From assembly GCA_021781555.1 (NCBI GenBank), contig JAJXWQ010000034.1:1-38511 (forward strand): DNA of 38,511 bases. Reading direction: 5' to 3'. This DNA comes from a bacterium (GTDB taxonomy: Bacteria > Cyanobacteriota > Sericytochromatia > S15B-MN24 > VGJW01). Shown here in pieces: positions 4,802 to 32,217 of this stretch; within the stretch, counting starts at the first letter, position 1; each line of letters starts with the position of its first letter. The translations under genes and the position numbers were made by a program. The notes under the pieces were generated by a model. It saw only the letters and a list, made by a program, of their open reading frames with translations. It made no database searches and was not told where the DNA came from.

Positions 4802-4909
4802 CTAGAGTGCTCCCGGTTTGAATGGATCGGGCCCGATGAGTCAAACGGGGCCCGGTTGCGCAGCGAAGCGACCGCGCAGAGGGCCCCGTTCAAACTGCAA
4901 AAGGTCTAG
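4802..4909 (+). repeat. CTAG-bounded element, full copy 3 (forward)
   Basis: A 108-bp near-consensus copy with CTAG at 4802-4805 and 4906-4909. The right CTAG, read on the minus strand, is the C-TAG stop codon of the 4906-6102 gene. The element therefore begins at the last codon of that gene and runs into its 3' flank. Confidence 0.93.
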
Positions 4910-6102
4910 CCGCCGAGGAAGTTGGCAACCGTGTCGTGGATCGGCCCCCAGAAGGTCGCCTTGAACATCGTGTCGAAGAGGGCGTAGAAGCCGACCGAAG
5001 CGGCCAGTCCGATCAGGAAGAACGGCAGACCGGCAGTGATGCCGAACAAGCCCCCGACCAGCGCAAGCACGCCGCCGCTGGCCACGGCAGTCAGGCCTCC
5101 CGACACGAATCCGTCGGCCGAGTCTGCCAGCACCGAACCCATGGCCTCGGGCATGCCCTCCTGGCCGGTCAGGACCTGGTAGCCGTTCGAGACGATCGAG
5201 ATGGCCGCCGAGACCAGCCCGGAAATCTTGGCCGCCTTCATGAACCCGCTGAAGAGTTCGCGGACGCCCTGCTTGAACGCCGCCATCCCCACGGGAGGCT
5301 TCACGTCCTTGGCGAGGGTCTTGCCTGCGACCTCGATCTCGCCCGAAGCACCGTTGGCCGGGCCAGCGACCGCATTGCCGGCTCCCCCGGCTGCATTGGC
5401 TCCGCCACTGGCATCCTTGGCCAGGCTGCCGGCGCCGTCAGCGGCCGAGCCAGCATCACCGCCGAGTCCGCCGGCTGAATCGGCGCCGCCGGTCAGACCG
5501 CCGGCGGCTCCCGAGCCGCCCCCTGCGATGCGACCGGCTGCTCGGCCGAGTCCCCCGTGGTCCTCGAGGTCCGCAATGAACTGACGGTCGGTGATGTCGA
5601 CGTTCGTCGTCTCGCGAAATCCGTCGGGCAATGCCACCGTGCTCGCACTCAAATCGATGCTCTGGCCGTCCTCGAGCACGAGGCCAGCATCCTGGCCAGC
5701 GTTACTCGCGACGTCCCTGGCGACGGCGCCCGTGGCGGCGGCGGTGCCAGACGCCGCGCCGGCCGACGAAGCCATGCTGCTCGCATCCCGGCTGACGGCT
5801 CCCGCCGCTTGACCGGCGTCCCCCGCGATCGCCTTGCCAGCTGCGGCCGCCGCTCCGGTGGCCGGGCCCGCGGATGCCGCGAACTTCACGGACTTTATGA
5901 CCGCCTCGGGATCCCGGGTCGTCCAGCCCTTGTAGATGTCCTGCCACCCGTGGATCGCGTCCTCGGAGGTGACCACGTCCTGGACCTTGCCCGAGGCCCA
6001 CTTGAACGCAGGAACCTGCTCGAGCTTGCTGTAGGCGCCCGACAGGGCCCCTCCGATCCGGGAGAAGACCCCGGCGGCAGGAACTGGAACTGAGGTAGCC
6101 AT
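4906..6102 (-). CDS. Ala/Gly-rich protein with C-terminal membrane helices, unknown function
   Basis: A 398-residue protein I do not recognise. Residues 1-70 look folded (VFSRIGGALSGAYSKLEQVP, a WQDIYKGWTTRDPEAVIKSV segment). Residues 75-130 are an Ala-rich stretch with repeated Asp/Arg pairs (GAVSRDA, GAVARDV). A short ordered segment follows (VLEDGQSIDLS, DGFRETTNVDITDRQF), then a Gly/Ala-rich linker to about 260. The C-terminal 120 residues contain strong hydrophobic segments (LVSAAISIVS; ASGGVLALVGGLFGITAGLP; FFLIGLAASVGFYALF), suggesting membrane insertion or pore-like behaviour. There is no signal peptide. The Ala-rich VARD-type leader recalls the starts of the C11 peptidase (11384) and PHP protein (30913). 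Its TAG stop lies in the repeat terminus. The ATG at 6102 has no obvious ribosome-binding site. Confidence 0.75.
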   Translation of the reverse strand: MATSVPVPAAGVFSRIGGALSGAYSKLEQVPAFKWASGKVQDVVTSEDAIHGWQDIYKGWTTRDPEAVIKSVKFAASAGPATGAAAAAGKAIAGDAGQAAGAVSRDASSMASSAGAASGTAAATGAVARDVASNAGQDAGLVLEDGQSIDLSASTVALPDGFRETTNVDITDRQFIADLEDHGGLGRAAGRIAGGGSGAAGGLTGGADSAGGLGGDAGSAADGAGSLAKDASGGANAAGGAGNAVAGPANGASGEIEVAGKTLAKDVKPPVGMAAFKQGVRELFSGFMKAAKISGLVSAAISIVSNGYQVLTGQEGMPEAMGSVLADSADGFVSGGLTAVASGGVLALVGGLFGITAGLPFFLIGLAASVGFYALFDTMFKATFWGPIHDTVANFLGG

Positions 6103-6333: not shown

Positions 6334-7713
6334 ATGGTCCCGGAAGTCCAGCGGTACCACTCTCTGGTCGACGAGGCCAACATGTCGGAGTCGTTCTTCG
6401 ACGACTTCATGGGCCGGATGCGGGGCGCCGGGATCACCTTCGGCGATCGGGTGAGCTGCCATTACCTCCGTCCCCAGATGGTGTCGACGGAGCAGTACGA
6501 GCGGATCAAGGCGGTCGTGCGCACGCTCTGCACGGCGCTAGACAAGCTTGGCGACGAGATGCTCCGCGTCCCGGCGTTGCTGGATCGTGTGGGCCTCACG
6601 GCCATCGAGAAGCACCTTGCCGCCATCGCTCCGGGCTACCGGCGGATCAGCCCCCTCGCACGCTTCGACAGCTTCCTGTCGGCGGACGCGCTCTCGTTCG
6701 TGGAGCTCAATGCCGAGAGCCCGGCGGGTTCGGTGTACACCGAGATCCTGTCCGACCTCTTCCTGGACCTGCCCGTCATGCGTAGCTTCCAGGATGCCTA
6801 CCAGATCCACCGCTTCCGGACCCGCGAGCGTCTCGTCGAGACCCTGCTCGGCACCTACCGCGAATGGCTCGGCAACGTTCCGGCCGAGCGGCGGGCTCGC
6901 ATCGAAGCCTCGGGCCGCAAGTTGCCCAACGTTGCCATCGTGGACTGGCTGGACGTCCCGACCTATTCCGAGTTCGAGCTCAGCAAGGAACTCTTCGAGC
7001 GGCATGGCATGGCGACGGCGATCGCCGACCCCCGCTCCCTTACCTACGACGGCGATCGCCTGCGCACGCAGGACGGCTTCGAGATCGACCTGCTGTACAA
7101 GCGCGTGCTCACCAACGAGTTCATCCGCGAGATCGATCGCTGCCAGCCCATGCTCGCGGCGTATCGTGACGGGGCCATGTGCATGGTCAACTCCTTCCGG
7201 AGCAAGCTGCTGCACAAGAAGATGATCTTCGGCCTGCTCACGGCCGAGGATCTCCAGCACCTCTTCACCCCTGCAGAGCAGGAGACGATCCGGCGGCACA
7301 TCCCCTGGACCCGCCGCCTGGAGGCGACGCACACGGTCTTCGAGGGCCAGAACATCGACCTGGTTCCGTGGACCAAGACCAACCGCGAAACCCTCGTGCT
7401 CAAGCCCAACGACGAGTACGGCGGCAAGGGGATCCATGTCGGCTGGACGCTGACCGACGACCAGTGGGCCCGGGCGGTCGACGAATCCCTGGGCGAGGAC
7501 TACCTCGTGCAGCGCAAGGTCGAGCTCTCGTACATGGACTTCCCCACGTTCCGGGACGGCCAGCTCCGGTTCGAGCGCCAGCTGGTCGACCTCGACCCCT
7601 ACGTGTTCGACGGCGAGGTCGAGGGCATCCTCACGCGTCTGTCGAGCACCGCCCTGGCCAACGTCACGGCGGGCGCCGGCATCGTCCCCACCTTCGTCAT
7701 CTCGGCGCGCTAG
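6334..7713 (+). CDS. Circularly permuted ATP-grasp ligase, glutathionylspermidine-synthase-like
   Basis: A 459-residue protein resembling the circularly permuted type 2 ATP-grasp family, which ligates a carboxylate to an amine or thiol through an acyl-phosphate. Visible features: RFDSFLSADALSFVELNAES followed by PAG (family signature), NSFRSKLLHKKMIFGLL and HIPWTRRLE in the central region, and LVLKPNDEYGGKGIHVGW, the nucleotide-binding lysine/glycine loop, near residue 355. Start: GGAGG precedes in-frame GTG (6331) and ATG (6334) by 5 and 8 bases, and I take the ATG; the open frame extends upstream but lacks such a signal. It is first of four co-directional genes with a YbdK-type ligase, an M29-like peptidase and a second ATP-grasp enzyme. 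The product is probably a peptide, amide or modified-protein adduct; substrate unknown. Confidence 0.85.
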   Translation: MVPEVQRYHSLVDEANMSESFFDDFMGRMRGAGITFGDRVSCHYLRPQMVSTEQYERIKAVVRTLCTALDKLGDEMLRVPALLDRVGLTAIEKHLAAIAPGYRRISPLARFDSFLSADALSFVELNAESPAGSVYTEILSDLFLDLPVMRSFQDAYQIHRFRTRERLVETLLGTYREWLGNVPAERRARIEASGRKLPNVAIVDWLDVPTYSEFELSKELFERHGMATAIADPRSLTYDGDRLRTQDGFEIDLLYKRVLTNEFIREIDRCQPMLAAYRDGAMCMVNSFRSKLLHKKMIFGLLTAEDLQHLFTPAEQETIRRHIPWTRRLEATHTVFEGQNIDLVPWTKTNRETLVLKPNDEYGGKGIHVGWTLTDDQWARAVDESLGEDYLVQRKVELSYMDFPTFRDGQLRFERQLVDLDPYVFDGEVEGILTRLSSTALANVTAGAGIVPTFVISAR

Positions 7714-7775
7714 GCAGGGCCAGTCGCGTTGCTGACCCGTCTGGAACGCCCCCCCTACTGCCCAGGAGGACGTTA

Positions 7776-8957
7776 GTGTTCGAGCAATTCACCATCGGGG
7801 TCGAGGAAGAGTACCAGATCGTCGATCCCAACACCCGCGAGCTCAAGAGCCACATTTCGGTGATGCTCGACGAGGGTCGCGTGGTCCTGGGCGAGCGCGT
7901 CAAGCCCGAGATGCACCAGTCGGTCGTCGAGGTCGGCACGGGCATCTGCAAGAACACCACCGAGGCCCGTCGCGACGTCATCGGCCTGCGCAAGACCGTC
8001 AGCCACCTTGCCCGCAAGAACGGCCTTCGCATCGCGGCCGGTGGCACGCACCCCTTCTCCGACTGGCGCCGCCAGGACATCACGCAGCACGATCGCTACT
8101 ACCAGATCGTCGAGGATCTGCAGGACGTCGCCCGTGGCAACCTGATCTTCGGCATGCACGTCCACGTCGGCGTCGAGGATCACCAGCTGGCGATCGAGCT
8201 CTTCAACCAGGCCCGCTACTTTCTCCCGCACATCCTCGCCCTGTCCTGCAGCTCGCCGTTCTGGCTCGGGCGCAAGAGCGGGCTCAAATCCACGCGTGCC
8301 TCGATCTTCCGGCAATTTCCGCGCACGGGCATCCCGGATCACTTTGACTCCTGGGCTCACTTCGAGAATTACATCGACACCCTCATCAAAACCGGCTGTA
8401 TCGACAACGGGAAGAAGGTCTGGTGGGATCTCCGGCCGCATTCCTTCTACAACACGATCGAGTTCCGGATCTGCGACCTCCCCACCTCCGTCGACACCAC
8501 GGTCGCCTTGACCGCCCTCATCCAGGCGATGGTCGCCAAGCTTTTCACGCTGCGCATCCAGAACCTCGAGTTTCGCGAGTACCCGCGCGCCCTCATCGAG
8601 GAGAACAAGTGGCGGGCCATGCGCTACGGCCTCGATGGCAAGCTGATCGACTTCGGCAAGCAGGAGGAAGTCCCGACCCGCGAGCTGGTGCTCGAGCTCC
8701 TGGAGTTCGTGGACGACGTCGTCGACGCTCTCGGATCCCGCAAGGATCTCGAGCATATCTACAAGATCCTTGAGCGCGGCACCGACGCCGACCGCCAGCT
8801 CGAGGTCTTCAAGGAGTCGGGCAACAACATGCAGGCGGTGGTCGATGACATGATCGTCCGCACCATGCAGGGGGTCGAGGGGAATACCTCGCTCCTTCCC
8901 GATCCCGCTACGATCGGCGCTCGCCCCGATGCCCCATCGGAGCCCACCAGACCGTGA
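7776..8957 (+). CDS. Carboxylate-amine ligase of the YbdK/GCS2 family
   Basis: A 393-residue ATP-dependent ligase of the glutamate-cysteine ligase type 2 family. E. coli YbdK has weak gamma-glutamylcysteine synthetase activity, and related enzymes make other gamma-glutamyl or amide bonds. Visible motifs: GVEEEYQIVD at the N-terminus (metal-binding glutamates), HQSVVEVGTGIC, GMHVHVGV (HxH), and RPHSFYNTIEFRICDLPTSV, the family's Arg-Pro/Thr-Ile-Glu-Phe-Arg signature. Start: GTG at 7776 with AGGAGG exactly six bases upstream, overruling the much longer open frame that begins upstream. It is 62 bp after the permuted ATP-grasp gene, and its stop overlaps the next start by four bases (GTGA). The substrate is not deducible: the neighbours argue for a dedicated pathway rather than plain glutathione synthesis. 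Confidence 0.93.
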   Translation: MFEQFTIGVEEEYQIVDPNTRELKSHISVMLDEGRVVLGERVKPEMHQSVVEVGTGICKNTTEARRDVIGLRKTVSHLARKNGLRIAAGGTHPFSDWRRQDITQHDRYYQIVEDLQDVARGNLIFGMHVHVGVEDHQLAIELFNQARYFLPHILALSCSSPFWLGRKSGLKSTRASIFRQFPRTGIPDHFDSWAHFENYIDTLIKTGCIDNGKKVWWDLRPHSFYNTIEFRICDLPTSVDTTVALTALIQAMVAKLFTLRIQNLEFREYPRALIEENKWRAMRYGLDGKLIDFGKQEEVPTRELVLELLEFVDDVVDALGSRKDLEHIYKILERGTDADRQLEVFKESGNNMQAVVDDMIVRTMQGVEGNTSLLPDPATIGARPDAPSEPTRP

Positions 8958-9982
8958 ATAGCCTCACGAGGCTCGATCAAGTTCCGTACGACCCCGACCT
9001 GGTCGAGGGAGCGCGCAATGCCGTTCGTGTCTGCTTGAACGTCAAGCCCGGTGAGAAGGTCACGCTCATCACCGACCGGAGCACCCTCGAGGTGGGCGCG
9101 AGCTTGTTCGACGAGCTCAAGAACGTCGGGGCCGTGGTCCAGGAGTTCGTGCTCGAGGACTACTCGGAACGCCCCCTCAAGAATACGCCCGCCCGCGTGC
9201 TGGATAGCGTCGGTCGCAGCGCGGCCACGCTGTATGCGGTCAACCCGCAGCCTGGCGAGGTCGTCACCCGGGCCCAGGTGATCAACCTTGCCACGCGCCG
9301 CAAGGTGCGTTACGGGCACATGGTCGGCATCACCAAGCGCATCATGACAGAGGGCATGCGCGCCGACTTCCACAAGATCAACCGCCTGTCGCTCCGCCTG
9401 CGCGGGATGCTCAACGAATCCCGGGTCATCCGGGTCACCAGCCCGGCCGGGACCGACCTCGAGGTCGAGCATGACCCGCTCAAGTACCGGTGGATCAAGA
9501 CCAGTGGCCTCATCAGCCGCGACGCCTGGGGCAATCTCCCGGGTGGCGAGATATTCACCCATCCTGCGCTCGTCCGCGGCGTCTGGGTCTGCGATGGACC
9601 GGCGGGCGATTACTTCAGCCAGAAGTATGGCGATCTGAAGGAGACCCCGCTCAAGGTCGAGATCTCTAATTCCCGCATCAAGAAGGCTTCCTGCGATCGC
9701 ACCGAGGTCGCGCGAGAGTTCTGGGACTACGTCCAGGAGGCCAACAACGCCAACCGCGTGGGCGAGGTCGCGGTAGGCACCAATCTCAACGTCAAGGAAT
9801 TCACGGGCAACTTGCTGCAAGACGAAAAGATCCCCGGCTTCCACATCGCCTTCGGCGAACCGTGCGGAGTCCTGACGGGGGCCGACTGGACCAGTCCCAC
9901 CCACATCGATCTCCTGGCCCGTAACTGCAACATCTGGCTGGACGGACGGCAAATCATGGCCGACGGTCAGTTCGTGATGTAA
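8954..9982 (+). CDS. Aminopeptidase of the M29 (AmpS/PepS-like) family
   Basis: A 342-residue protein resembling the M29 aminopeptidase family (two-metal enzymes). Visible family elements: LPGGEIFTHPA with the metal-binding Glu and His; the C-terminal GFHIAFGEPCGVLTGADWTS and THIDLL stretch with further metal or catalytic positions; and the N-terminal alpha/beta half (LVEGARNAVRVCLNVKPGEK). It is shorter than typical M29 enzymes (about 400 residues). It starts at GTG 8954, overlapping the ligase stop by four bases, so translation is probably coupled. In the cluster it could trim, recycle or proofread the peptide made by the ligases. That role is inference; a non-peptidase hydrolase role is possible because some family members are uncharacterised. 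Confidence 0.82.
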   Translation: MNSLTRLDQVPYDPDLVEGARNAVRVCLNVKPGEKVTLITDRSTLEVGASLFDELKNVGAVVQEFVLEDYSERPLKNTPARVLDSVGRSAATLYAVNPQPGEVVTRAQVINLATRRKVRYGHMVGITKRIMTEGMRADFHKINRLSLRLRGMLNESRVIRVTSPAGTDLEVEHDPLKYRWIKTSGLISRDAWGNLPGGEIFTHPALVRGVWVCDGPAGDYFSQKYGDLKETPLKVEISNSRIKKASCDRTEVAREFWDYVQEANNANRVGEVAVGTNLNVKEFTGNLLQDEKIPGFHIAFGEPCGVLTGADWTSPTHIDLLARNCNIWLDGRQIMADGQFVM

Positions 9983-10141
9983 GGATGAGAATACTCTGGC
10001 GCCAATGGTTCAACCGGTCGCGCCAGGGCCGCACTAGCCGGAGCTAGCCCCCCCCGTAGCCACTGCCCGAGCGCGGGAAGTATCGCGAGAGAGGTCCGGG
10101 CCCCTTCAAGAGGCCCGTTTCATACCGGAGGTTGCAACACA
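9983..10141. other. 159-bp leader between peptidase and second ATP-grasp gene
   Basis: Non-coding by inspection. It contains a short imperfect hairpin near its 3' end (GGGCCCCTTCAAGAGGCCC, then GTTT) and GGAGG ten bases before the next ATG. It could hold a weak terminator or attenuator, or a second promoter, making the fourth gene partly independent. Confidence 0.35.
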
Positions 10142-11158
10142 ATGTCGAAAGGAACGCCCCGCAAGGTCGGCATCCTGGTGGGCTTCGAGAATACCTTCCC
10201 GCAGGCCTTCATCGATGCCGTCAACAAGATGGGCAACGGAGAGGTCGTGGCCGAGTTCGCCTCGGTCGGCGTCACCAAGGACAACGACGGCAAGCGCTAT
10301 GACGTCCTGGTCGACCGGATCAGCCACGAGATCGAGATGTACAAGCCCTGGCTCAAGCAGGAGGCCCTGAACGGCGCCTACGTGATCAACGATCCCTTCT
10401 GGTGGAACGCCGACGACAAGTACTTCGACAACGCCCTGGTGGCCAAGCTGGGCGTGGCCGTGCCTCGCACCGTGGTCCTGCCGTCCCAGACCCCGCATCC
10501 CCGGACCACGTCCAAGAGCTACCGCAACATGGCGCTGATGGACTGGGACGAGATCTTCGACTACCTCAAGTTCCCTCTCTTCATGAAGCCCTATGATGGC
10601 GGCGGCTGGCGCAACGTGTACAAGTGCCGCACGCCGGAGGAAGTCTTCGAGAACTACCACCAGACCGGTCAGCTGGTGATGGTCCTCCAGGAGGCCATCG
10701 AGTTCGATTCCTACTGCCGGTGCCTTTGCGTCGGCAAGGACCGCATCATCCCCATCAAGTACGATCCCAAGGCCAAGGAGACCACCGGGTTCGGCGCTTA
10801 TCTCGATTCCGACGAGTTCGAGCCCGGCAAGAGCGCCCTGGCCGATCGCATTCACCGCGATGCCCGCGTGATCAACCACGCGCTCAACTACGACATGAAC
10901 TCGGTGGAGTTCGCCGTCCGCGACGGCGTTCCCTATGCGATCGACTTCATGAACCCCGCCCCCGACATGGACTACTACTCGATCACGCCCAAGTACTTCG
11001 ACCGGGTCGTCGAGGCGATGAGCAGCTTCGCGGTCGAGATCGCCAAGATCGGCAAGCCGCTCAACACGGAGCACTATCCCTGGCGCACGCTCCTCGAGAC
11101 CGGCGGTGAACTGCCGCAGCGGATCCCGATCGTCAAGGAGCCGGTCACGGCCAAGTAG
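10142..11158 (+). CDS. ATP-grasp ligase, RimK-like
   Basis: A 338-residue ATP-grasp enzyme. An N-terminal pre-ATP-grasp alpha/beta domain (VGILVGFENTFPQAFIDAVN) is followed by the ATP-binding core: PLFMKPYDGGGWRNVYKC holds the phosphate-binding lysine and glycine loop, and VLQEAIEFDSYCRCLCVG is the adenine-contacting/hinge region. DMNSVEFAVRDGVPYAIDFM then NPAPD gives the Glu/Asn magnesium ligands. It belongs broadly with the RimK/glutathione-synthetase-like ligases, which add amino acids or peptides to a carboxylate. It is fourth in the run with the permuted ATP-grasp ligase, YbdK-type ligase and M29 peptidase. Two different ATP-grasp enzymes plus a GCS2 ligase suggest stepwise formation of a short peptide or amide. 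The TAG stop is 12 bp from a decayed repeat copy. Confidence 0.88.
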   Translation: MSKGTPRKVGILVGFENTFPQAFIDAVNKMGNGEVVAEFASVGVTKDNDGKRYDVLVDRISHEIEMYKPWLKQEALNGAYVINDPFWWNADDKYFDNALVAKLGVAVPRTVVLPSQTPHPRTTSKSYRNMALMDWDEIFDYLKFPLFMKPYDGGGWRNVYKCRTPEEVFENYHQTGQLVMVLQEAIEFDSYCRCLCVGKDRIIPIKYDPKAKETTGFGAYLDSDEFEPGKSALADRIHRDARVINHALNYDMNSVEFAVRDGVPYAIDFMNPAPDMDYYSITPKYFDRVVEAMSSFAVEIAKIGKPLNTEHYPWRTLLETGGELPQRIPIVKEPVTAK

Positions 11159-11170
11159 GCCACAGGAAAG

Positions 11171-11271
11171 CTACCGCGTGCTCAGGGTTTGATCGGATCG
11201 AGCCCGAGGTTTCAAAGAGGGTCCGGTTGCGCAGCGTCGCGACCGGGCCCTCTGCAAGCTGCAGAAGCTAC
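11171..11271 (+). repeat. CTAG-bounded element, decayed copy 4 (forward) flanked by AAGCTAC
   Basis: Clear but diverged homology to the element (GGGTTTGATCGGATCGAGCC, then GGTCCGGTTGCGCAGCG). The terminal CTAG has become CTAC on both sides. The seven bases AAGCTAC occur at 11168-11174 and 11265-11271, resembling a target-site duplication. It lies between the second ATP-grasp gene and the C11 peptidase gene. Confidence 0.75.
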
Positions 11272-11383
11272 AGCCTGGCCTGGACGAACCCATTTTTTAA
11301 CGCCACCTTAAGTAAGATCCTGAAAAACGGCCAGATAACCTCCCTGGACGGGCGCGGTGCGCCCCTGGAGGAGGAGTAGAGGA

Positions 11384-13261
11384 ATGGCTTTGCCTGTCGA
11401 CGGCCTGGTGCGCGATGGCCTGAAGTTCGTGAGTTCCGCGCTGCGGCAGGATCTGACCCGAAACACCGCTCCCGTCGCCAGGGATGCCGCCGACGCGGTC
11501 GAACGCGATGCCGCAGACGCTTTGGGCCACGCCGCAGTGCCGGATGCCAGCGCCAAGGCCGGCTCTCTGGGCCGGGACGTGTTCAAGAGCTCGGATTATC
11601 CGTTCGTCAATCCGCACTCGAAGTCCGCCTGGGCGCATGTTCACGCCGTGGGTGGGACGCAACAGGTCGCCGCCCTTCCGGCGGTGTCAAACAAGGCTAC
11701 CAAGCTCGGCGTCTACGGTGTCTTCGACAACAACCTCTCGCAGGGCGGGAAGGTGATCGCCCAGCGCTTCGCCAAGCTCGGCAAGCTGGCCCATGCCGGC
11801 CTGGTCTACCAGTCGACCGATCCGGTCGACCACATGACGATCCGAGAACTCGACGACGCGGGCAAGCTGCCTTACCTGAAGCTCGGAAACCAATCGGGAT
11901 CTGACCCCGCGCAGCTCGAGAACTTCGTGCGCCAGAACCTCTTCGGCTCGAGCGGCGGAGCGGCCAGCGGCGCCAAGGACCTGGTGCTCGCCGATCACGG
12001 CGGGGCCATCTTCGGCTGGGGGCAGACCAAGCAGGGCGCGATCATGGGTTGGCCCGACGCCATGCAGGCGATCCGCAACGGCATGCCCGCCGACCAGAAG
12101 CTGCGGGCCCTGGTGCTCGACATGTGCATGACGGGCGGCTCTGCCGAGGCTGCCGTCGAGGCCTCTGCCAAGAACGTCGCCGACGTGATGGTAGGCTCGG
12201 AGGACGAGTCGATCTCGGAGGGCTTCCACGAGGACAAGCTCCTGGCCGCGCTCAACGCCAATCCGAACCTGGACGGCAAGGCCATCTCGAAGGAAATCAT
12301 GGCGGCGAGCAAGCCGCACAGCATCGACACCCGGGATTACCAGGTCGTGGCGACCTCGCTCGATCCCAAGAAGGTCTCCGCCTTCACGTCGGCTTTCAAG
12401 AACCTCGCCGATCTCTTGAAGAGCAAGGGCGAGGGCGATCAGGGCATGCGCCAGAGCATCCGGCAGGCCTTCGCCGCCACGCGGGCTCCCTACGTGGAGA
12501 CCGGGCCCGAGGCCTATCCCAACCGCGACGTCAAGCTCCTGATGCAGAATCTCCGCGCCCACGTCAAGGACCCCCAGATCGTTGCCGCCACTCGTGCCGT
12601 GGACCAGGCGCACGACGGCATGGTGATCGCCCACCAGGAGAATCAGGTGGAGCGCGGGGCCACCCGCGGGATGTCCGTCAGCTTGACGCCCCAGTACTGG
12701 AACGATGCCCCGCTCGGCCTGTACGGCAAGACGACGACGTACGGCGAGTACTACAAGCAGACGGCCTTCGACCAGGCTACCGGCTGGTCGGGAGTGCTCG
12801 ACCTGGCCAACCGCGACGATGCCCTGCTCGCCCAAGGCGTCAAGGTGTCGCAGGGGGGAGACAAGGCCGGGGCGATCGGCCTCCTGCGCCAGGCCGTGGC
12901 CGAGAACCCCACCAACCTGACCGCACAGGCATGGCTGGGATCGCTGCTGGCCCAGGACGCCAAGACGGCCCCCGAGGCCCAGAATATTCTGCGTGGCGTC
13001 GCTCGCCATCAAGCCTTCGGCTCGCTGAGCCTGGCGACCACCAAGCGGGACCTGGGCACGGCACTGGCCAACAGTGGCGATCCAACCCGGGCGGCGATCG
13101 AGCTGGGTAAGATGAAGGACAACCTGGACGCCTACCTGGCCGCCGGCCAGAGCAGCCTCTCCTACAGCGACTACCTGAACACGCAGCAACAGATCCAGGC
13201 TCGCTTCGGCGGCGCGCTCGCTCTCCTCGGCAAGCTCAAGCAGCCCGCGGCCAAGCCATAA
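11384..13261 (+). CDS. Clostripain-family (C11) cysteine peptidase with C-terminal TPR-like helices
   Basis: A 625-residue protein. Residues 1-65 are an Ala/Asp-rich helical leader (TAPVARDAADAVERDAADA) with no signal peptide. Residues about 105-400 resemble C11 peptidases (caspase-like clan CD): the strand LGVYGVFDNNL matches the family start, His205 in VLADHGG is the expected catalytic histidine, and Cys248 in LVLDMCMTGGSAEAAVE the nucleophile. C-terminal residues about 455-625 contain helix pairs like tetratricopeptide repeats (GDKAGAIGLLRQAVAENPTN then LTAQAWLGSLLA), probably for partner binding. The ATG at 11384 follows GAGGAGGAGTAGAGGA. C11 enzymes usually cut after basic residues and may self-activate; specificity here is unknown. 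The missing Sec signal is unusual for this normally secreted family. Confidence 0.85.
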   Translation: MALPVDGLVRDGLKFVSSALRQDLTRNTAPVARDAADAVERDAADALGHAAVPDASAKAGSLGRDVFKSSDYPFVNPHSKSAWAHVHAVGGTQQVAALPAVSNKATKLGVYGVFDNNLSQGGKVIAQRFAKLGKLAHAGLVYQSTDPVDHMTIRELDDAGKLPYLKLGNQSGSDPAQLENFVRQNLFGSSGGAASGAKDLVLADHGGAIFGWGQTKQGAIMGWPDAMQAIRNGMPADQKLRALVLDMCMTGGSAEAAVEASAKNVADVMVGSEDESISEGFHEDKLLAALNANPNLDGKAISKEIMAASKPHSIDTRDYQVVATSLDPKKVSAFTSAFKNLADLLKSKGEGDQGMRQSIRQAFAATRAPYVETGPEAYPNRDVKLLMQNLRAHVKDPQIVAATRAVDQAHDGMVIAHQENQVERGATRGMSVSLTPQYWNDAPLGLYGKTTTYGEYYKQTAFDQATGWSGVLDLANRDDALLAQGVKVSQGGDKAGAIGLLRQAVAENPTNLTAQAWLGSLLAQDAKTAPEAQNILRGVARHQAFGSLSLATTKRDLGTALANSGDPTRAAIELGKMKDNLDAYLAAGQSSLSYSDYLNTQQQIQARFGGALALLGKLKQPAAKP

Positions 13262-13325: not shown

Positions 13326-13871
13326 ATGGAAAAGAGTCGAGGATCCCTGCTCCGCCACCTCGTACCGGACGAGACCGTGCGGCGGGTCGAAGATCTCGAT
13401 CCCGAGCGCCTGGCTGCCGAAGGCATCGCCGGCTTGATCCTCGACCTCGACGACACCTTGGTCTGTGCTGCCGACCCGCTGGCGACGGACGGGGTTTGCG
13501 AGTGGATCGAGAGCACCCGGGCGCACCTCAAGGTCGTGATCTTGAGCAACAACCACCGCCGCCACAGGGTGGCGCCGGTCGCACGGCAGCTGTCGCTCCC
13601 CTTCATCCTGCGCGCCTTCAAGCCGTTGCGCTCCGGGTTCCGGCGTGCGCTCGAGCTCCTCGAGCTCCCGGCCGAGCAGGTCGCGGTCGTGGGCGACCAG
13701 GTCTTCACCGACGTTCTGGGCGGGCGACGGCTGGGAGCGCGGACGATCCTGGTGACCCCCCTGTCGGCCCACGAGCGCCGGTGGGCTCGCCGCCTGATGC
13801 GCCGGCTCGAGCGAACGGTACTCTCTGGTGTGCAGCGGACTCGCGCCGGGGGCGTGGGTCCGCTACGATGA
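13326..13871 (+). CDS. YqeG-family HAD phosphatase
   Basis: A 181-residue HAD-superfamily IIIA phosphatase of the YqeG type. Visible motifs: Asp40-Leu-Asp42-Asp-Thr (DLDDTL, nucleophile and acid/base), Ser74 in ILSNN, Lys99 in AFKP and GDQVFTDVLGGRRLG (Asp124, Asp129). Length agrees with the family. Relatives in yeast and plants dephosphorylate phosphatidylglycerol-phosphate. In bacteria the role is less certain, and phospholipid synthesis is plausible. Start: ATG 13326. It is followed after 24 bp by purine nucleoside phosphorylase and then PBP1A, so the three may form one transcription unit. Confidence 0.9.
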   Translation: MEKSRGSLLRHLVPDETVRRVEDLDPERLAAEGIAGLILDLDDTLVCAADPLATDGVCEWIESTRAHLKVVILSNNHRRHRVAPVARQLSLPFILRAFKPLRSGFRRALELLELPAEQVAVVGDQVFTDVLGGRRLGARTILVTPLSAHERRWARRLMRRLERTVLSGVQRTRAGGVGPLR

Positions 13872-13895
13872 CAAGACTATCGTGAAAGGTCAGTC

Positions 13896-14699
13896 ATGCC
13901 GGCTTCGATGACGCAGCCCGATTTCGAGCAAGCGGCCGCACTCTGCCGCGGTGATGCCGAGCCCGTGGAGTACGGGATCATCCTGGGTAGCGGCCTGTCC
14001 ATCCTGGACGAGCTCGAGGATCGCCGCGACACATCGTACCGCGACATTCCTGGGTTTCCACCTTCCACGGTCGAGGGCCACAAGGGTCTGCTGTCGATCG
14101 GACGCATCCCGGGCGGATCCCGGGTGGCGATCGCTCGCGGGCGTTTTCACCTCTACGAGGGCCTCCCCGCGGCGTCGGCACGTTACCTCGTGAGCTTGTT
14201 CGCCGCACTCGGCTCGCACTCGGTCATCCTGTCCAATGCGGCGGGCGGGCTGCGGGCCGACTTCACGCCCGGCGACCTCATGCTCCTTTCCGACCAGCTG
14301 AACTTGACCTTCCGATCGAGCGCCGAGGCCGGAGCGGTCAAGTTCGGCCAGGCGCTCTACGATCCGTCCTGGCAGGCACAGGCACTGGCGATCGCCGGAG
14401 CCCAGGGCCTGCCGGTGAGCCAGGGGGTCTACGTCGGCTTGCTCGGTCCGAGCTACGAGACGGCTGGCGAGATCGCCTTCCTGTCGCGTTTCGCGGACGC
14501 CGTCGGGATGTCGACGGTCCTCGAGGCGCAGGCCGCCGCGAGCCTCGGCCTGCGGGCCCTGGGGGTCTCGTGCATCACCAATGTGGCCATCACGACGGTC
14601 GGCCTGGCTCAGACCAGCCACGCCGAGGTCATGGACGTGGCCCAGCGCGCCTCTGGCCACCTCGAGCGCCTTCTGGTAGCCCTTTGCAAGGCCTCCTGA
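13896..14699 (+). CDS. punA: Purine nucleoside phosphorylase
   Basis: A 267-residue trimeric-type purine nucleoside phosphorylase (PNP/MTAP family), which cleaves purine nucleosides with phosphate to base plus ribose-1-phosphate. Visible motifs: ILGSGLSILDE (phosphate-binding serine), VEGHKGLLSIGRI, GRFHLYEG (His contacting phosphate), SNAAGGLRADFTPGDLML, GLLGPSYETAGEIAFLSRFA and VGMSTVLEA (purine site; family members usually have Pro before the Glu, here Leu). SCITNVA carries the purine-binding Asn and SHAEVM the His-containing helix. Length is normal. AAAGG lies six bases before the ATG; a second in-frame ATG four codons on is possible. Confidence 0.94.
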   Translation: MPASMTQPDFEQAAALCRGDAEPVEYGIILGSGLSILDELEDRRDTSYRDIPGFPPSTVEGHKGLLSIGRIPGGSRVAIARGRFHLYEGLPAASARYLVSLFAALGSHSVILSNAAGGLRADFTPGDLMLLSDQLNLTFRSSAEAGAVKFGQALYDPSWQAQALAIAGAQGLPVSQGVYVGLLGPSYETAGEIAFLSRFADAVGMSTVLEAQAAASLGLRALGVSCITNVAITTVGLAQTSHAEVMDVAQRASGHLERLLVALCKAS

Positions 14700-14769
14700 T
14701 GGCCCTGCGGCGCCGCCGCTGCCCCCGCTCCAGATCGGGCCAGCGGGGCACGTAGACGAGACCGTTCCC

Positions 14770-16878
14770 GTGCCCAAAGACGTAGACCCGGGGCGGCCTC
14801 AGGCCGCCGATTCCGGCGTGGCGCGGCGCGGACGCGGCAAGCGCAAGCGCCGCCGGCCACCAGCCCCCAAGCCCTGGAGCCTTCCGGTGGCCGTGGGTGT
14901 CCTGGCCACGGGCAGCGGCCTTTTCCTGTTCGCCGGGGCGGCCGTCGGCCTCAGCCTCGCCTTCCAGAAGCTGCCCGATGTGGGCCTCTTGCAGGGCTAC
15001 GTGCCGTACGAGACCACGATGATCTACGACGACAAGGATCGGCTGCTCGCGGCGGTGCACGGCCAGCAGAACCGAGTCGTGGTGCCACTGGGAGAGATTC
15101 CCCGGGAGGTTCGCAACGCCGTGATCGCTGCCGAGGACGTGCGGTTCTTCTACCACCGCGGCATCGATCCCCGGGGCATCGTGCGGGCCTTCCTGGTTGA
15201 CCTCGCCGGCGGCCGGGCCGAGCAGGGAGCCAGCACCCTGACGCAGCAGCTGGCCAAGAACCTCTTTCTGACGGATTCCAAGACCATTCGCCGCAAGCTT
15301 GCCGACGCCTGGCTGGCGATCCAGATCGAACGGCGGTACAGCAAGGATCAGATCCTCGAGCTGTACCTCAACCAGGTTTACTGGGGCCACAATGCCTATG
15401 GCATCGAAGCCGCCTCTGAGACCTATTTCAACAAGGGCGTACGCAAGCTCAACCTGCCCGAAGCCGCGCTCCTGGCAGGACTCCTGGGCGGTCCCGAGCG
15501 CTTCAACCCCTACCGCGACGCCAAGCTCGCCAAGCTGCACCAGGTCCACGTCCTGCGCAACATGTACCAGGCTGGTTTCATCACGAAAGGCCAGCTCCAG
15601 GCAGCGTTGACCTATCCGCTGCACTATCCCAAGGAGCCGCCTCTCGTGCGGGAGAGCTACCGGGCCCCGTATTTCACCAACTACCTGCTGGAGCACCTGG
15701 TCAACCGCTTCGGCAAGGATATGGTCTACCGGGGCGGCCTCCGGGTCCACACCACGCTCGACCTGCAGCTCCAGGATTACGCCCAGGCGCTCCTGCGCAA
15801 GGCGATCGCCAGGTCGGGCAAGGCTCACCACTTCTCTCAGGGTGCCATCGTGGCCATCGATCCCCACACCGGGGCGATCCGCGTGATGGTCGGTGGCAGG
15901 GACTGGAACCAGAGCAAGTTCAACCGCGTGGTGCAGGCCCTGCGCCAGCCGGGGAGCTCGTTCAAACCCTTCCTCTACCTGACCGCCTTCGCCGAGGGTG
16001 TCACGCCGGCGATGCGCCTGGACGACACCCCGGCCAGTTACGTCGCCGGCAATGGCAAGCTGTGGACGCCCGAGAATTACGACCACGAGCACTATGGCGA
16101 CATCCCCCTCCGGCGCGCCCTCGAGGTCTCGGACAACGTCATCGCGGTGAAGCTGATGGACCGGGTGGGGGTGGACCACGTGATCGAGACGGCTCACCAG
16201 CTGGGGATCTCGAGCCCGCTGAGCCCCGACATGTCCCTGGCGCTGGGCACATCGGCCGTCACACCGCTCGACATGTGCTCGGCCTACGGGGTATTCGCCA
16301 CCTATGGTTTGCGCACGGAGCCCATCGCCTACACCACGATCGCCGACCGCTCGGGCGCGATCATCGCACGCCAGGTACCCCACCTGCGCCAGGTCTTTCC
16401 GGCCGACCCGGTGAAGGTCCTCGACGACGTGCTCCAGGGCGTAATTCTTCGCGGTACGGGTTATGCGGCGAGCATCGTGGGCCGGCCCGCGGCCGGCAAG
16501 ACCGGCACGACGTCGGACTTCCGGGACGCCTGGTTCATAGGGTTCACGCCCGATCTCGTGACGGCGGTCTGGGTGGGGAACGACAACGACACCCCCATGA
16601 CCAGCGGGTCTGCCGGCGGCGACATCTGCGCCCCGTTGTGGGGCAAGTTCATGCTCTTGGCGGACCGAGCGTTCCCGGTGACGCCTTTCGCGAAGCCGCC
16701 AGCTCGTCTCCTCGGTCCCCCGCCGGCAACCCCGCGCCCCAAGGCCGCGACTGCGAGCGCCAGTCCGAAGATACCGGCCCCCCGCCGGCCCTCGAAGGTG
16801 CTGCCGACGCCGGCCGAGACGGGGGCCGGCAAGCCGCCGCGCCGCCCGGCGCTCCGGGCGGCCCCATTTTCACCTTGA
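14770..16878 (+). CDS. Class A penicillin-binding protein (PBP1A-like)
   Basis: A 702-residue bifunctional peptidoglycan synthase. A basic cytoplasmic tail (RRGRGKRKRRRP) precedes one membrane helix (about 37-64). The GT51 transglycosylase domain has catalytic Glu122 in AAEDVRFFYHRGID and GASTLTQQLAKN at 153-164. The transpeptidase domain has Ser396-x-x-Lys399 (SSFK, acylated serine), Ser454-Asp-Asn456 and Lys577-Thr-Gly. The C-terminal 60 residues are a Pro/Ala-rich disordered tail. All catalytic motifs are intact. The GTG start at 14770 has only a weak ribosome-binding site. It follows punA by 70 bp. A short GC hairpin (16884-16896) lies just after the stop. Confidence 0.96.
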   Translation: MPKDVDPGRPQAADSGVARRGRGKRKRRRPPAPKPWSLPVAVGVLATGSGLFLFAGAAVGLSLAFQKLPDVGLLQGYVPYETTMIYDDKDRLLAAVHGQQNRVVVPLGEIPREVRNAVIAAEDVRFFYHRGIDPRGIVRAFLVDLAGGRAEQGASTLTQQLAKNLFLTDSKTIRRKLADAWLAIQIERRYSKDQILELYLNQVYWGHNAYGIEAASETYFNKGVRKLNLPEAALLAGLLGGPERFNPYRDAKLAKLHQVHVLRNMYQAGFITKGQLQAALTYPLHYPKEPPLVRESYRAPYFTNYLLEHLVNRFGKDMVYRGGLRVHTTLDLQLQDYAQALLRKAIARSGKAHHFSQGAIVAIDPHTGAIRVMVGGRDWNQSKFNRVVQALRQPGSSFKPFLYLTAFAEGVTPAMRLDDTPASYVAGNGKLWTPENYDHEHYGDIPLRRALEVSDNVIAVKLMDRVGVDHVIETAHQLGISSPLSPDMSLALGTSAVTPLDMCSAYGVFATYGLRTEPIAYTTIADRSGAIIARQVPHLRQVFPADPVKVLDDVLQGVILRGTGYAASIVGRPAAGKTGTTSDFRDAWFIGFTPDLVTAVWVGNDNDTPMTSGSAGGDICAPLWGKFMLLADRAFPVTPFAKPPARLLGPPPATPRPKAATASASPKIPAPRRPSKVLPTPAETGAGKPPRRPALRAAPFSP

Positions 16879-30562: not shown

Positions 30563-30912
30563 GGTAGTTATCGTCGCTCCTCGTTCGGCCCCCGGCCACC
30601 GGGTGCCCGCACGGTCTTCACCCGCGGCGGGGCGTTGGCGCGAGCCGGGCGGCCAGCAGCAGCGCGTGGGCCTGGTCGAGACACTCCTGGTACTCGGAAC
30701 GGGCGCTGGACGCCATGATAGCAGTGCCTGCCCGTGCCAGCATCCAAGTCTTCGCACGGTGCTTCTCCCGCCGCCGTTTGACCGCCCGAACGGTCCTGGT
30801 GCGATGCGAACCGCGGCCCCCGCCGGCCTTATCAAAAGCTTAAGGTCGGCTGAAAGCTGCATGGGCCATCACTGGGTGGAGCCGGATGCGGCACGTGGAG
30901 AGGAGTAGGATC
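30563..30912. other. 350-bp divergent gap between DUF47 and PHP genes
   Basis: Mostly GC-rich non-coding sequence. It holds a possible 32-codon leftward open frame (30618-30716, see separate entry), a small AT-richer patch near 30828-30860 (CTTATCAAAAGCTTAAGGTC) likely containing the PHP-gene promoter, and the AGGAG site of the PHP gene. Confidence 0.4.
30618..30716 (-). CDS. Possible small ORF upstream of DUF47 (32 aa)
   Basis: ATG at 30716 to TGA at 30618, encoding an amphipathic helix (EYQECLDQAHALLLAARLAP) with a basic end. GCAGG is ten bases upstream. It is co-directional with the DUF47 gene, 55 bp before it. It could be a small protein, a leader peptide, or chance; no homology is recognised. 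Confidence 0.25.
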   Translation of the reverse strand: MASSARSEYQECLDQAHALLLAARLAPTPRRG

Positions 30913-32217
30913 GTGGGTCTGAGTGCGGTAGCCGATCGCCTCTTGAAGGGCGTCGCAAAGAAAGCGACGTCAGCCGTCGCCGCAGACAGCAAGCAGGTGG
31001 TCCAAGCGGCCGACAAAGCCGCAGAGGGCCTGGCAGCGAGCGGCCGGGCCGCCGGCGGGAAGCTTGCCGGCGATAGCCTCGAGCTATCCTCGAAAGCCGT
31101 CGCCACTCTCGCGGGAGCTGCCCGGGCGCTTCCCGACCCGCCGGCCGGGGCAGCGCTGGATGCCGCGACCGCGGCTGCGGCAGGCCGCATGCCGGCCCCG
31201 GCCACGCGGACCGGCGAATGGCTCACCGTCGCAAATCATCTGCACACCACCCCGTATTCGCCGGATGCCAACGAGCCCGAGGCCGATCTGATCCAGCGCC
31301 TCGAGAAAGCCGGTGTCGACGGCATGATCCTCACCGACCACAACTCGATGGGCGGGACCTTGACCCCGGAATGGCAGGCCGCCGAGTCGAAGCTGATCAT
31401 GACCCCGGGCATGGAATGGGGCGCCCTCCGGGAGACGGGCATGACCGTGCAGGGGCACGCCGGGCTCATCGGCCTGACCGGAACGACGAACATTCCGACC
31501 AACGCCACCATCGACGAGATGATCCCGTTCGCCAAGGCACGCAATGCCTTCATCGTGGCGAACCACCCCTACCTCGACGGCAACGCCTGGGCCACCCGGC
31601 CGGTCCTCCAGCCGGAGGTCGGCGGGGTCGAGGTCTGGAACGGACAGTGGGCCCTGAGCGATCCGATCTCACACAACGCGCAGGCGCTCAGCTGGTGGGA
31701 TTCCATGCTCAAGCAGGGTCGGCACCTCACCGCCGTCGGGGGGTCGGACTTCCACGGCGATTGGTGGACCAAGTTCCCGCGCCTACCGGGGAGCTCGCCG
31801 GTGAAGCCCGTCGACCTCCTGTTCGCCTCGGAGCACTCGCCCGAGGGGGTCAAGCAGGCGATCGCCGACGGCCATGTCTCGGTGGAGTCGAGCGACACCG
31901 CCGCCAAGATCGTTCTCGAGGCAGACCCCAAGCATGACGGCTCCTGGAGTGCGATCCAGGGGGACGATATCAACGTCGCTCAGGACGGCACGATTCCGAT
32001 GCGCGCCCACGTCCTCGGCGGCAAGGGATTGACGGTCGAATTCTACGGCAAGGCCGGGCAGGTCGGCTCGTACCCCGTGATGACGGACGACGCCTACGTG
32101 CCGTACTCGGCGGTCGGAGTCCCCAACGTCAAGGACTACGTCCGGGCGGAGCTCAAGCAACATCCCGGGCAATGGTGGTCGATGACCGCCCTGACCAATC
32201 CCATCTACGTGAACTGA
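30913..32217 (+). CDS. PHP-domain metallohydrolase with Ala-rich leader (CehA/McbA-like)
   Basis: A 434-residue protein. Residues 1-100 form an Ala/Lys/Ser-rich amphipathic leader (GVAKKATSAVAADSKQVVQA) without a signal peptide. Residues 105-330 are a PHP phosphoesterase-type domain: NHLHT (His109, His111), TDHNS (Asp142, His143), GMEW (Glu168), GHAG (His182), VANHPY (His218) and VGGSDFHG (Asp279, His281) provide the expected metal ligands. A C-terminal beta-rich domain of about 90 residues follows (GLTVEFYGKAGQVGSYPV). Start: GTG 30913 with AGGAG seven bases upstream in a GAGGAGTAGGA context like that of the C11 peptidase and KGG genes. Relatives hydrolyse carbamates or phosphoesters; substrate unknown. 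It is followed by a lipase lipoprotein after 27 bp, probably one operon. Confidence 0.87.
   Translation: MGLSAVADRLLKGVAKKATSAVAADSKQVVQAADKAAEGLAASGRAAGGKLAGDSLELSSKAVATLAGAARALPDPPAGAALDAATAAAAGRMPAPATRTGEWLTVANHLHTTPYSPDANEPEADLIQRLEKAGVDGMILTDHNSMGGTLTPEWQAAESKLIMTPGMEWGALRETGMTVQGHAGLIGLTGTTNIPTNATIDEMIPFAKARNAFIVANHPYLDGNAWATRPVLQPEVGGVEVWNGQWALSDPISHNAQALSWWDSMLKQGRHLTAVGGSDFHGDWWTKFPRLPGSSPVKPVDLLFASEHSPEGVKQAIADGHVSVESSDTAAKIVLEADPKHDGSWSAIQGDDINVAQDGTIPMRAHVLGGKGLTVEFYGKAGQVGSYPVMTDDAYVPYSAVGVPNVKDYVRAELKQHPGQWWSMTALTNPIYVN

What the first reader, a model, noticed from the sequence alone, without database searches (positions are those of the whole stretch)
11384..13261. Clostripain-family peptidase with TPR-like tail and intact catalytic pair in a cytoplasmic-looking context
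Seen: His205 and Cys248 in the expected motifs, and a helical-repeat tail. Known: C11 enzymes are usually secreted or surface-exposed; caspase-like peptidases with repeat domains are common in bacterial regulated-death and defence modules. Inference: a protease activated through its TPR tail, possibly linked to the adjacent Ala-rich and PHP proteins or to the ligase operon directly upstream.
Basis: partly seen in the sequence, partly recalled or inferred. Interest (0 to 1): 0.55.

Follow-up and report, generated by a model that had tools for sequence, protein, structure and literature searches.

The report
Clostripain-type protease lacking export signal
This is an intact clostripain-type protein-cutting enzyme from an uncultured relative of cyanobacteria; its relatives are carried to the cell surface, but this one has exchanged its export signal for a different front end and gained a helical tail, which suggests that it has been re-routed in the cell.

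Summary
ATG 11384 opens a 625-aa coding sequence with a peptidase C11 (clostripain) domain: Pfam just above its cut-off, predicted fold like clostripain (Z 31.4), His205/Cys248 and S1-pocket Asp246 in place. It has no Sec signal and a TPR-like tail (about residues 472-546; fold suggestive, sequence below threshold). The regulated-death/defence reading is not supported: no PADLOC hit, housekeeping neighbours, and the class's other C11 enzymes are exported, mostly lipoproteins. The genome belongs to the Sericytochromatia (by kinship of matching named contigs). Of 64 C11 proteins from the class's 18 held genomes, 50 show a lipobox by pattern and 6 more a Sec signal by eye; 4 are clearly signal-less, this one included, and it is by far the most divergent. 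A second gene in the window, a PHP-domain protein (30886-32217), shows the same change: its four nearest orthologues are lipoproteins, while it carries an Ala-rich helical N-terminus. Several peptidoglycan-binding proteins of this genome also lack Sec signals. I read it as a former surface C11 protease that was re-targeted, either by a non-Sec route or to the cytoplasm; which of the two is not resolved. New variant of a known kind.

The parts
11384..13261 (+). C11 (clostripain-family) cysteine peptidase, 625 aa, no Sec signal
11384..11665 (+). N-terminal extension, residues 1-94: amphipathic helix (about 6-23), then Ala/Asp-rich helix (31-46) and low-confidence linker; stands where relatives have a lipoprotein signal
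   Evidence: model pLDDT under 50 over 1-91; relatives' signals
11690..12793 (+). C11 peptidase domain, residues 103-470
   Evidence: fold match to 9cip_B 103-486, 6n9j_A 103-470; profile alignment
11996..11998 (+). catalytic His205 codon (HG doublet)
   Evidence: invariant column
12119..12127 (+). Asp246-Met247-Cys248: S1-pocket Asp and catalytic Cys
   Evidence: Cys invariant, Asp nearly invariant; role of the Asp from PMC4850288 passages
12797..13021 (+). TPR-like helical pairs, residues about 472-546
   Evidence: suggestive
13022..13258 (+). further C-terminal helices, residues 547-625, low confidence
11216..11253 (+). 16-bp perfect hairpin between the ATP-grasp gene and the C11 gene (possible terminator or regulatory element; no U-tract)
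   Evidence: z -2.94; not listed as a terminator
30886..32217 (+). PHP-domain protein with the same kind of N-terminal swap (companion evidence)

Best explanation
An active-looking C11 cysteine peptidase, expected to cut after Arg or Lys, that descends from the exported, mostly lipoprotein C11 enzymes of the Sericytochromatia. It lost the lipoprotein signal and gained a ~94-residue Ala-rich helical N-terminal extension and a C-terminal TPR-like tail. Shown here: domain, predicted fold, catalytic residues, absence of a Sec signal, lipoprotein relatives, and the same swap in a second gene of the window. Inferred: the N-terminal extension sets a new location, most likely outside the cytoplasm by a non-Sec route like the signal-less peptidoglycan-binding proteins of the same genome; the TPR-like tail docks a partner or substrate; and the enzyme may mature by self-cleavage in the loop after His205, as studied C11 enzymes do.
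For: Domain and residues. Fold: (clostripain Z 31.4, B. thetaiotaomicron C11 30.4, iotapain 29.7, zymogen 28.5). Descent: profile comparison to nine core relatives, of which eight are lipoproteins and L019 is signal-less, gives 99.7% probability, E 3e-27, against 39% for the other signal-less pair. Relatives exported. Companion swap in the PHP protein: four nearest orthologues, 39-51% identical in the alignment, are lipoproteins. Signal-less peptidoglycan-binding proteins in 1.2 Mb of this genome: 8 of 11 complete ones found by the segment search. Another signal-less C11 (L019, G008) lies 193 bp from a divergent signal-less PG-binding protein.
Against: No export machine has been tied to these proteins. 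The N-terminal extensions of the C11 and PHP proteins are not detectably homologous (shuffle fraction 0.087), nor found elsewhere in the genome at a convincing E-value. The survey also shows lipoproteins retained as usual: of 11 credible pairs with a lipoprotein relative, 6 keep the lipobox. The gene has no close relative, so purifying selection cannot be measured, and a single draft genome supports it. Plain cytoplasmic residence explains the missing signal equally well.
Confidence: 0.45

Rival explanations
1. A cytoplasmic housekeeping or regulatory C11 protease: the signal was lost, the enzyme now works inside, and the TPR-like tail selects substrates or partners.
For: No Sec signal and no upstream room for one; TPR-like tail; an intracellular C11, PNT1 in trypanosome kinetoplasts, is known (PMC4850289 abstract and passages).
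Against: Relatives are exported; the companion PHP protein and signal-less PG-binding proteins suggest a wider non-Sec set.
Confidence: 0.35
2. A caspase-like effector of a death or anti-phage module, switched on through its tail.
For: Clan CD protease with a repeat tail; arrangement recalls TPR-CHAT (seen in a search listing only).
Against: No PADLOC model hit; neighbours are housekeeping blocks conserved without it in relatives; C11 rather than CHAT or caspase family.
Confidence: 0.05
3. A decaying paralogue: the long branch (2.96 changes per column) reflects relaxed selection on a gene that lost its signal by chance.
For: Longest branch of 64; no orthologue found by protein search in the four genomes of the same genus or family.
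Against: 625 open codons with strong codon usage, ribosome site, all catalytic and most invariant positions kept, extra structured tail.
Confidence: 0.1
4. A protease working with the upstream CP-ATP-grasp/GCS2/M29/ATP-grasp ligase operon, for instance trimming a peptide product.
For: Same strand, directly downstream; in G008 another signal-less C11 and in G006 a signal-less CHAP+glucosaminidase protein lie 3' of the same gene.
Against: 225-bp gap with a strong hairpin; absent at this place in G002, G004, G007, G009; G008's C11 belongs to a different subfamily by similarity.
Confidence: 0.05

Closest known systems
Clostripain and other studied C11 peptidases (9cip, 6n9j, 6nag, 3uws PmC11)
   Same: Fold, His/Cys dyad, Asp two residues before the Cys
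   Different: Titles of 6n9j and 6nag call them secreted; this one has no Sec signal, has a DMC rather than DAC triplet, an N-terminal Ala-rich extension and a TPR-like tail
Sericytochromatia C11 lipoproteins (L017, L018, L020, L023, L025, L024, L026)
   Same: 21-27% identity; invariant catalytic positions
   Different: They have lipoprotein signals and end at the C11 domain
Signal-less C11 proteins L019, L117, L121 of G008 and G009
   Same: No Sec signal; N-terminal extensions; L117 and L121 also have C-terminal extensions
   Different: L019 lacks a tail; L117/L121 tails show no similarity to this one (shuffle fractions 0.19 and 0.48)
TPR-CHAT (Craspase protease)
   Same: Caspase-like fold plus TPRs (search listing only)
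   Different: Different peptidase family and much larger TPR part (recalled); works with a CRISPR effector, for which I saw no sign here

Membership tests
Peptidase family C11 (PF03415) | Profile score above the curated cut-off | tested here: met
   26.8 vs 25.8 bits, a narrow pass; the genome-wide first look with the same family missed it
Peptidase family C11 (PF03415) | Clostripain-type fold | tested here: met
   Z 31.4 / 352 residues / rmsd 3.5 to 9cip; seven C11 entries lead the list
Peptidase family C11 (PF03415) | Catalytic His-Gly and Cys, Asp two before the Cys | tested here: met
   His205-Gly206, Asp246, Cys248 (roles from PMC4850288)
Peptidase family C11 (PF03415) | Peptidase activity with basic P1 | not testable with these tools
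   inferred from Asp246
Clan CD motif in its literal form D(A/S)C | Ala or Ser between Asp and Cys (as worded in PMC4850289) | tested here: not met
   DMC here; other C11 of the class with high PF03415 scores also depart (L027 = G010:C173, DMC, 174 bits; L094/L095 DTC, L107 DCC), so I do not treat the middle residue as defining
TPR repeat | Pfam TPR score above cut-off | tested here: not met
   TPR_19 17.1 vs 25; TPR_14 16.2 vs 23.5: I call it TPR-like, not a TPR protein
TPR repeat | TPR helix-pair fold | tested here: inconclusive
   Z 12-13 over about 70 residues; within the range the tool warns of for helical repeats
Anti-phage defence effector | Match to a known defence model | tested here: not met
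   0 PADLOC hits for C11, ATP-grasp, M29, GCS2; housekeeping neighbours
Sec-exported lipoprotein C11 | N-terminal signal with lipobox | tested here: not met
   none in frame back to the stop at 11336

The most novel reading that the evidence does not exclude
In this lineage former Sec lipoproteins (the C11 protease and the PHP enzyme of this window) have had their signals replaced by Ala-rich helical N-terminal extensions that act as a new targeting signal, feeding a non-Sec export route (or an internal compartment) shared with a set of signal-less peptidoglycan-binding proteins; I found no description of such a route in this class (searches, listings only).
Probability: 0.22. Interest if true: 0.65.

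Novelty: new variant of a known kind. Interest (0 to 1): 0.4.

Why it matters
The studied bacterial C11 proteases are secreted or surface enzymes. A signal-less member with a docking-type tail, beside lipoprotein relatives, gives a clean pair for asking how such a protease is tamed or re-routed. If the N-terminal swap is a targeting signal, it would point to an unrecognised export route in the non-photosynthetic sister lineage of cyanobacteria.

Tried and rejected
Defence/death module: no PADLOC hit. Horizontal spread: no match in plasmids or by pattern in viral contigs.

Shared N-terminal motif: L117 and L161 share 'L.DVVA.AK'; in the loci then held the only other match was in a window frame that I do not call a gene; I treat it as chance. 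N-terminal extensions were compared with shuffles: C11-PHP 0.087, C11-L019 0.074, PHP-L019 0.064, and C11 and PHP each against the Ala-rich 4906-6102 protein 0.015; five tests on low-complexity sequence, so no claim.

One origin of the signal-less C11s: window+L117+L121 as a clade is not rejected (p-AU 0.207), though similarity puts the window with the core relatives; the tests of window+L019 and of all four did not finish. The fewest changes of signal on the quick tree are 3 (58 of 64 rows labelled). The window's branch is so long that its place is unsure.

Machine: FHIPEP (export gate of flagella and type III systems) is in 17 of 18 genomes, two in G000; I first suspected a second type III system, but both lie among flagellar genes (gene names read by eye), so only a flagellar export apparatus is shown. 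Contractile sheath: over the cut-off in 4 of 18 genomes, not in G000, whose 25-bit hit lies among prophage-like genes.

A Lys (216) lies in the loop after His205, where PmC11 cleaves itself at Lys147, but basic residues occur there in some relatives too: no inference. The survey listed 13 own genes whose best relative fits a lipobox pattern, 4 of them with a lipobox too. I dropped two response regulators as false lipobox matches, and moved L201 and L190 to 'kept', because they have a lipobox when the start is read further up or the n-region is long; that gives 6 kept of 11. Papers: none found on C11 with TPR or on secretion in Sericytochromatia (searches; listings only). PMC4850288 and PMC4850289 were read by passages.

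Full report
What is there. It carries a peptidase C11 domain, narrowly over the Pfam cut-off (26.8 vs 25.8 bits). His205 and Cys248 are invariant among ten aligned sequences, along with 21 other columns, and Asp246 sits two before the Cys, where PmC11 has the S1-pocket Asp177. AlphaFold2 on a ten-row alignment gave pTM 0.66 with the first 91 residues under pLDDT 50. VIA-align puts seven C11 structures first (Z 31.4 to 16.7), above the TPR rows at about 12. So the enzyme is a C11 peptidase by score, predicted fold and residues; activity is not tested.

The tail. Residues about 472-546 look like two TPR-type helix pairs: TPR_19 17.1 bits (cut-off 25), TPR structures at Z 12-13 for the whole model and for the tail alone. 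The tool warns that helical repeats can reach 13 by arrangement alone, so I say TPR-like. None of the nine relatives in A1 has this tail, and a search of 18 class genomes with it found only one weak hit outside the window (E 0.006).

Whose genome. G000 is a 3.8-Mb genome in 181 contigs. The scan of named contigs with A1 returned contigs with the same lengths as contigs that hold relatives in the window's order and class (12263, 6578, 119434, 248325, 8702 and 6269 bases), titled Cyanobacteria bacterium or Candidatus Sericytochromatia bacterium (compare).

Relatives are exported. A1 finds C11 proteins in 16 of 18 class genomes. I collected 64 distinct rows, leaving out two fragments of one interrupted gene and one duplicate. 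A lipobox pattern fits 50 of 64; of the 14 others, by eye 3 are lipoproteins, 3 have ordinary Sec signals (one cut by a contig edge), 3 are truncated at a contig edge, one (L078) is unclear, and 4 are signal-less: the window's, L019, L117 and L121. The window row has the longest branch of all (2.96 against a median of 0.48). By profile it is nearest to the core set of nine relatives (E 3e-27), eight of them lipoproteins and one the signal-less L019, not to L117/L121, though a clade with the latter is not rejected (p-AU 0.207).

A second gene shows the same change. The PHP-domain protein at 30886-32217 has no Sec signal and an Ala-rich helical N-terminus of about 80 residues. Its four nearest orthologues, in G002, G004, G003 and G008 (39-51% identical in A3), have lipoprotein signals. 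The two N-termini are alike in character but not demonstrably homologous. Of the 11 credible own genes whose best relative in my small sample is a lipoprotein, 6 keep the lipobox, so the swap is not general.

Other signal-less envelope-type proteins. In 1,197,435 bases of G000 (1,035 called genes), four query segments carrying LysM, glucosaminidase or PG-binding domains found 13 proteins; two are cut at an edge, and of the other 11, 8 show no Sec-type N-terminus (L189, L215, three of L200, two of L245, L235), while L209, L254 and L190 have a hydrophobic N-terminal stretch. Starts of L215 and L235 are uncertain. Pfam confirms peptidoglycan-type domains for all eight. In relatives, L019 (G008), a signal-less C11, lies 193 bp from a divergent signal-less PG-binding protein, and L161 of G006 holds a signal-less CHAP+glucosaminidase protein. 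Enzymes of this kind act outside the cytoplasm (general knowledge), which suggests some non-Sec route; the only candidate machine I could show is the flagellar export apparatus, and nothing ties the proteins to it.

Neighbourhood. The gene stands between two blocks: a ligase operon (6334-11158) and YqeG-PNP-PBP1a (13326-16878). Both blocks recur in relatives without a C11 between or inside them. Eight genomes including G000 have a close ATP-grasp orthologue; in seven its 3' flank can be read, and a signal-less hydrolase follows in three: the window, G008 (C11, convergent) and G006 (CHAP+glucosaminidase, convergent); not in G002, G004, G007 or G009. This was noticed after the fact and is only a lead. 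A 16-bp hairpin in the 225-bp gap argues for a separate transcript.

How it probably works. Shown: an intact C11 fold (predicted) and dyad, no Sec signal, new N- and C-terminal parts, exported relatives. Inferred: Arg/Lys specificity from Asp246; the tail docks a partner or substrate; the N-terminal part gives a new address. I give the non-Sec reading 0.45, cytoplasmic residence 0.35, decay 0.10. The death-module reading has nothing specific for it.

Novelty. A clostripain-family member with an unusual architecture and, probably, location: a new variant of a known kind. The broader idea, re-routing of former lipoproteins by a swapped N-terminus, is the bolder reading and stays open.

Noticed in passing
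window 30886-32217 (+): PHP-domain protein without Sec signal and with an Ala-rich helical N-terminus, whose four nearest orthologues are lipoproteins.
   Followed up: yes
window 4906-6102 (-): Gly/Ala-rich protein with a hydrophobic C-terminal part; relatives stand divergent to the same ligase operon in G002 (L157:4700-6148) and G003 (L158:4994-6208), and a likely paralogue lies on G000:C1 (L186:4558-5652). No Pfam hit.
   Followed up: partly
window 6334-11158 (+): Conserved operon of a CP-ATP-grasp protein, a YbdK-type GCS2 ligase, an M29-like protein and an ATP-grasp protein across the order; product unknown.
   Followed up: partly
window 11216-11253: Perfect 16-bp GC-rich hairpin (z -2.94) between the ATP-grasp and C11 genes, without a T-run.
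   Followed up: partly
G000:C16:32727-34721 and G000:C134:39449-41398; G007 and G008: Two FlhA-type export gates per genome in most of the class, both among flagellar genes in G000; G007 and G008 also hold many matches to the FlhA cytosolic part alone.
   Followed up: partly
L200:186-7760 (G000:C15): Three neighbouring signal-less PG-binding proteins share an N-terminal stretch (DVF[VI]GG...MV.G...HP) that no Pfam hit covers.
   Followed up: partly
L163:10136-11995 (G009:C43): A signal-less C11 with a C-terminal extension lies beside genes that read by eye as type IV pilus/pseudopilin genes.
   Followed up: no
L265 (G000:C84): Genes that read by eye as a prophage tail cluster, with a sheath-like protein below the Pfam cut-off.
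   Followed up: no
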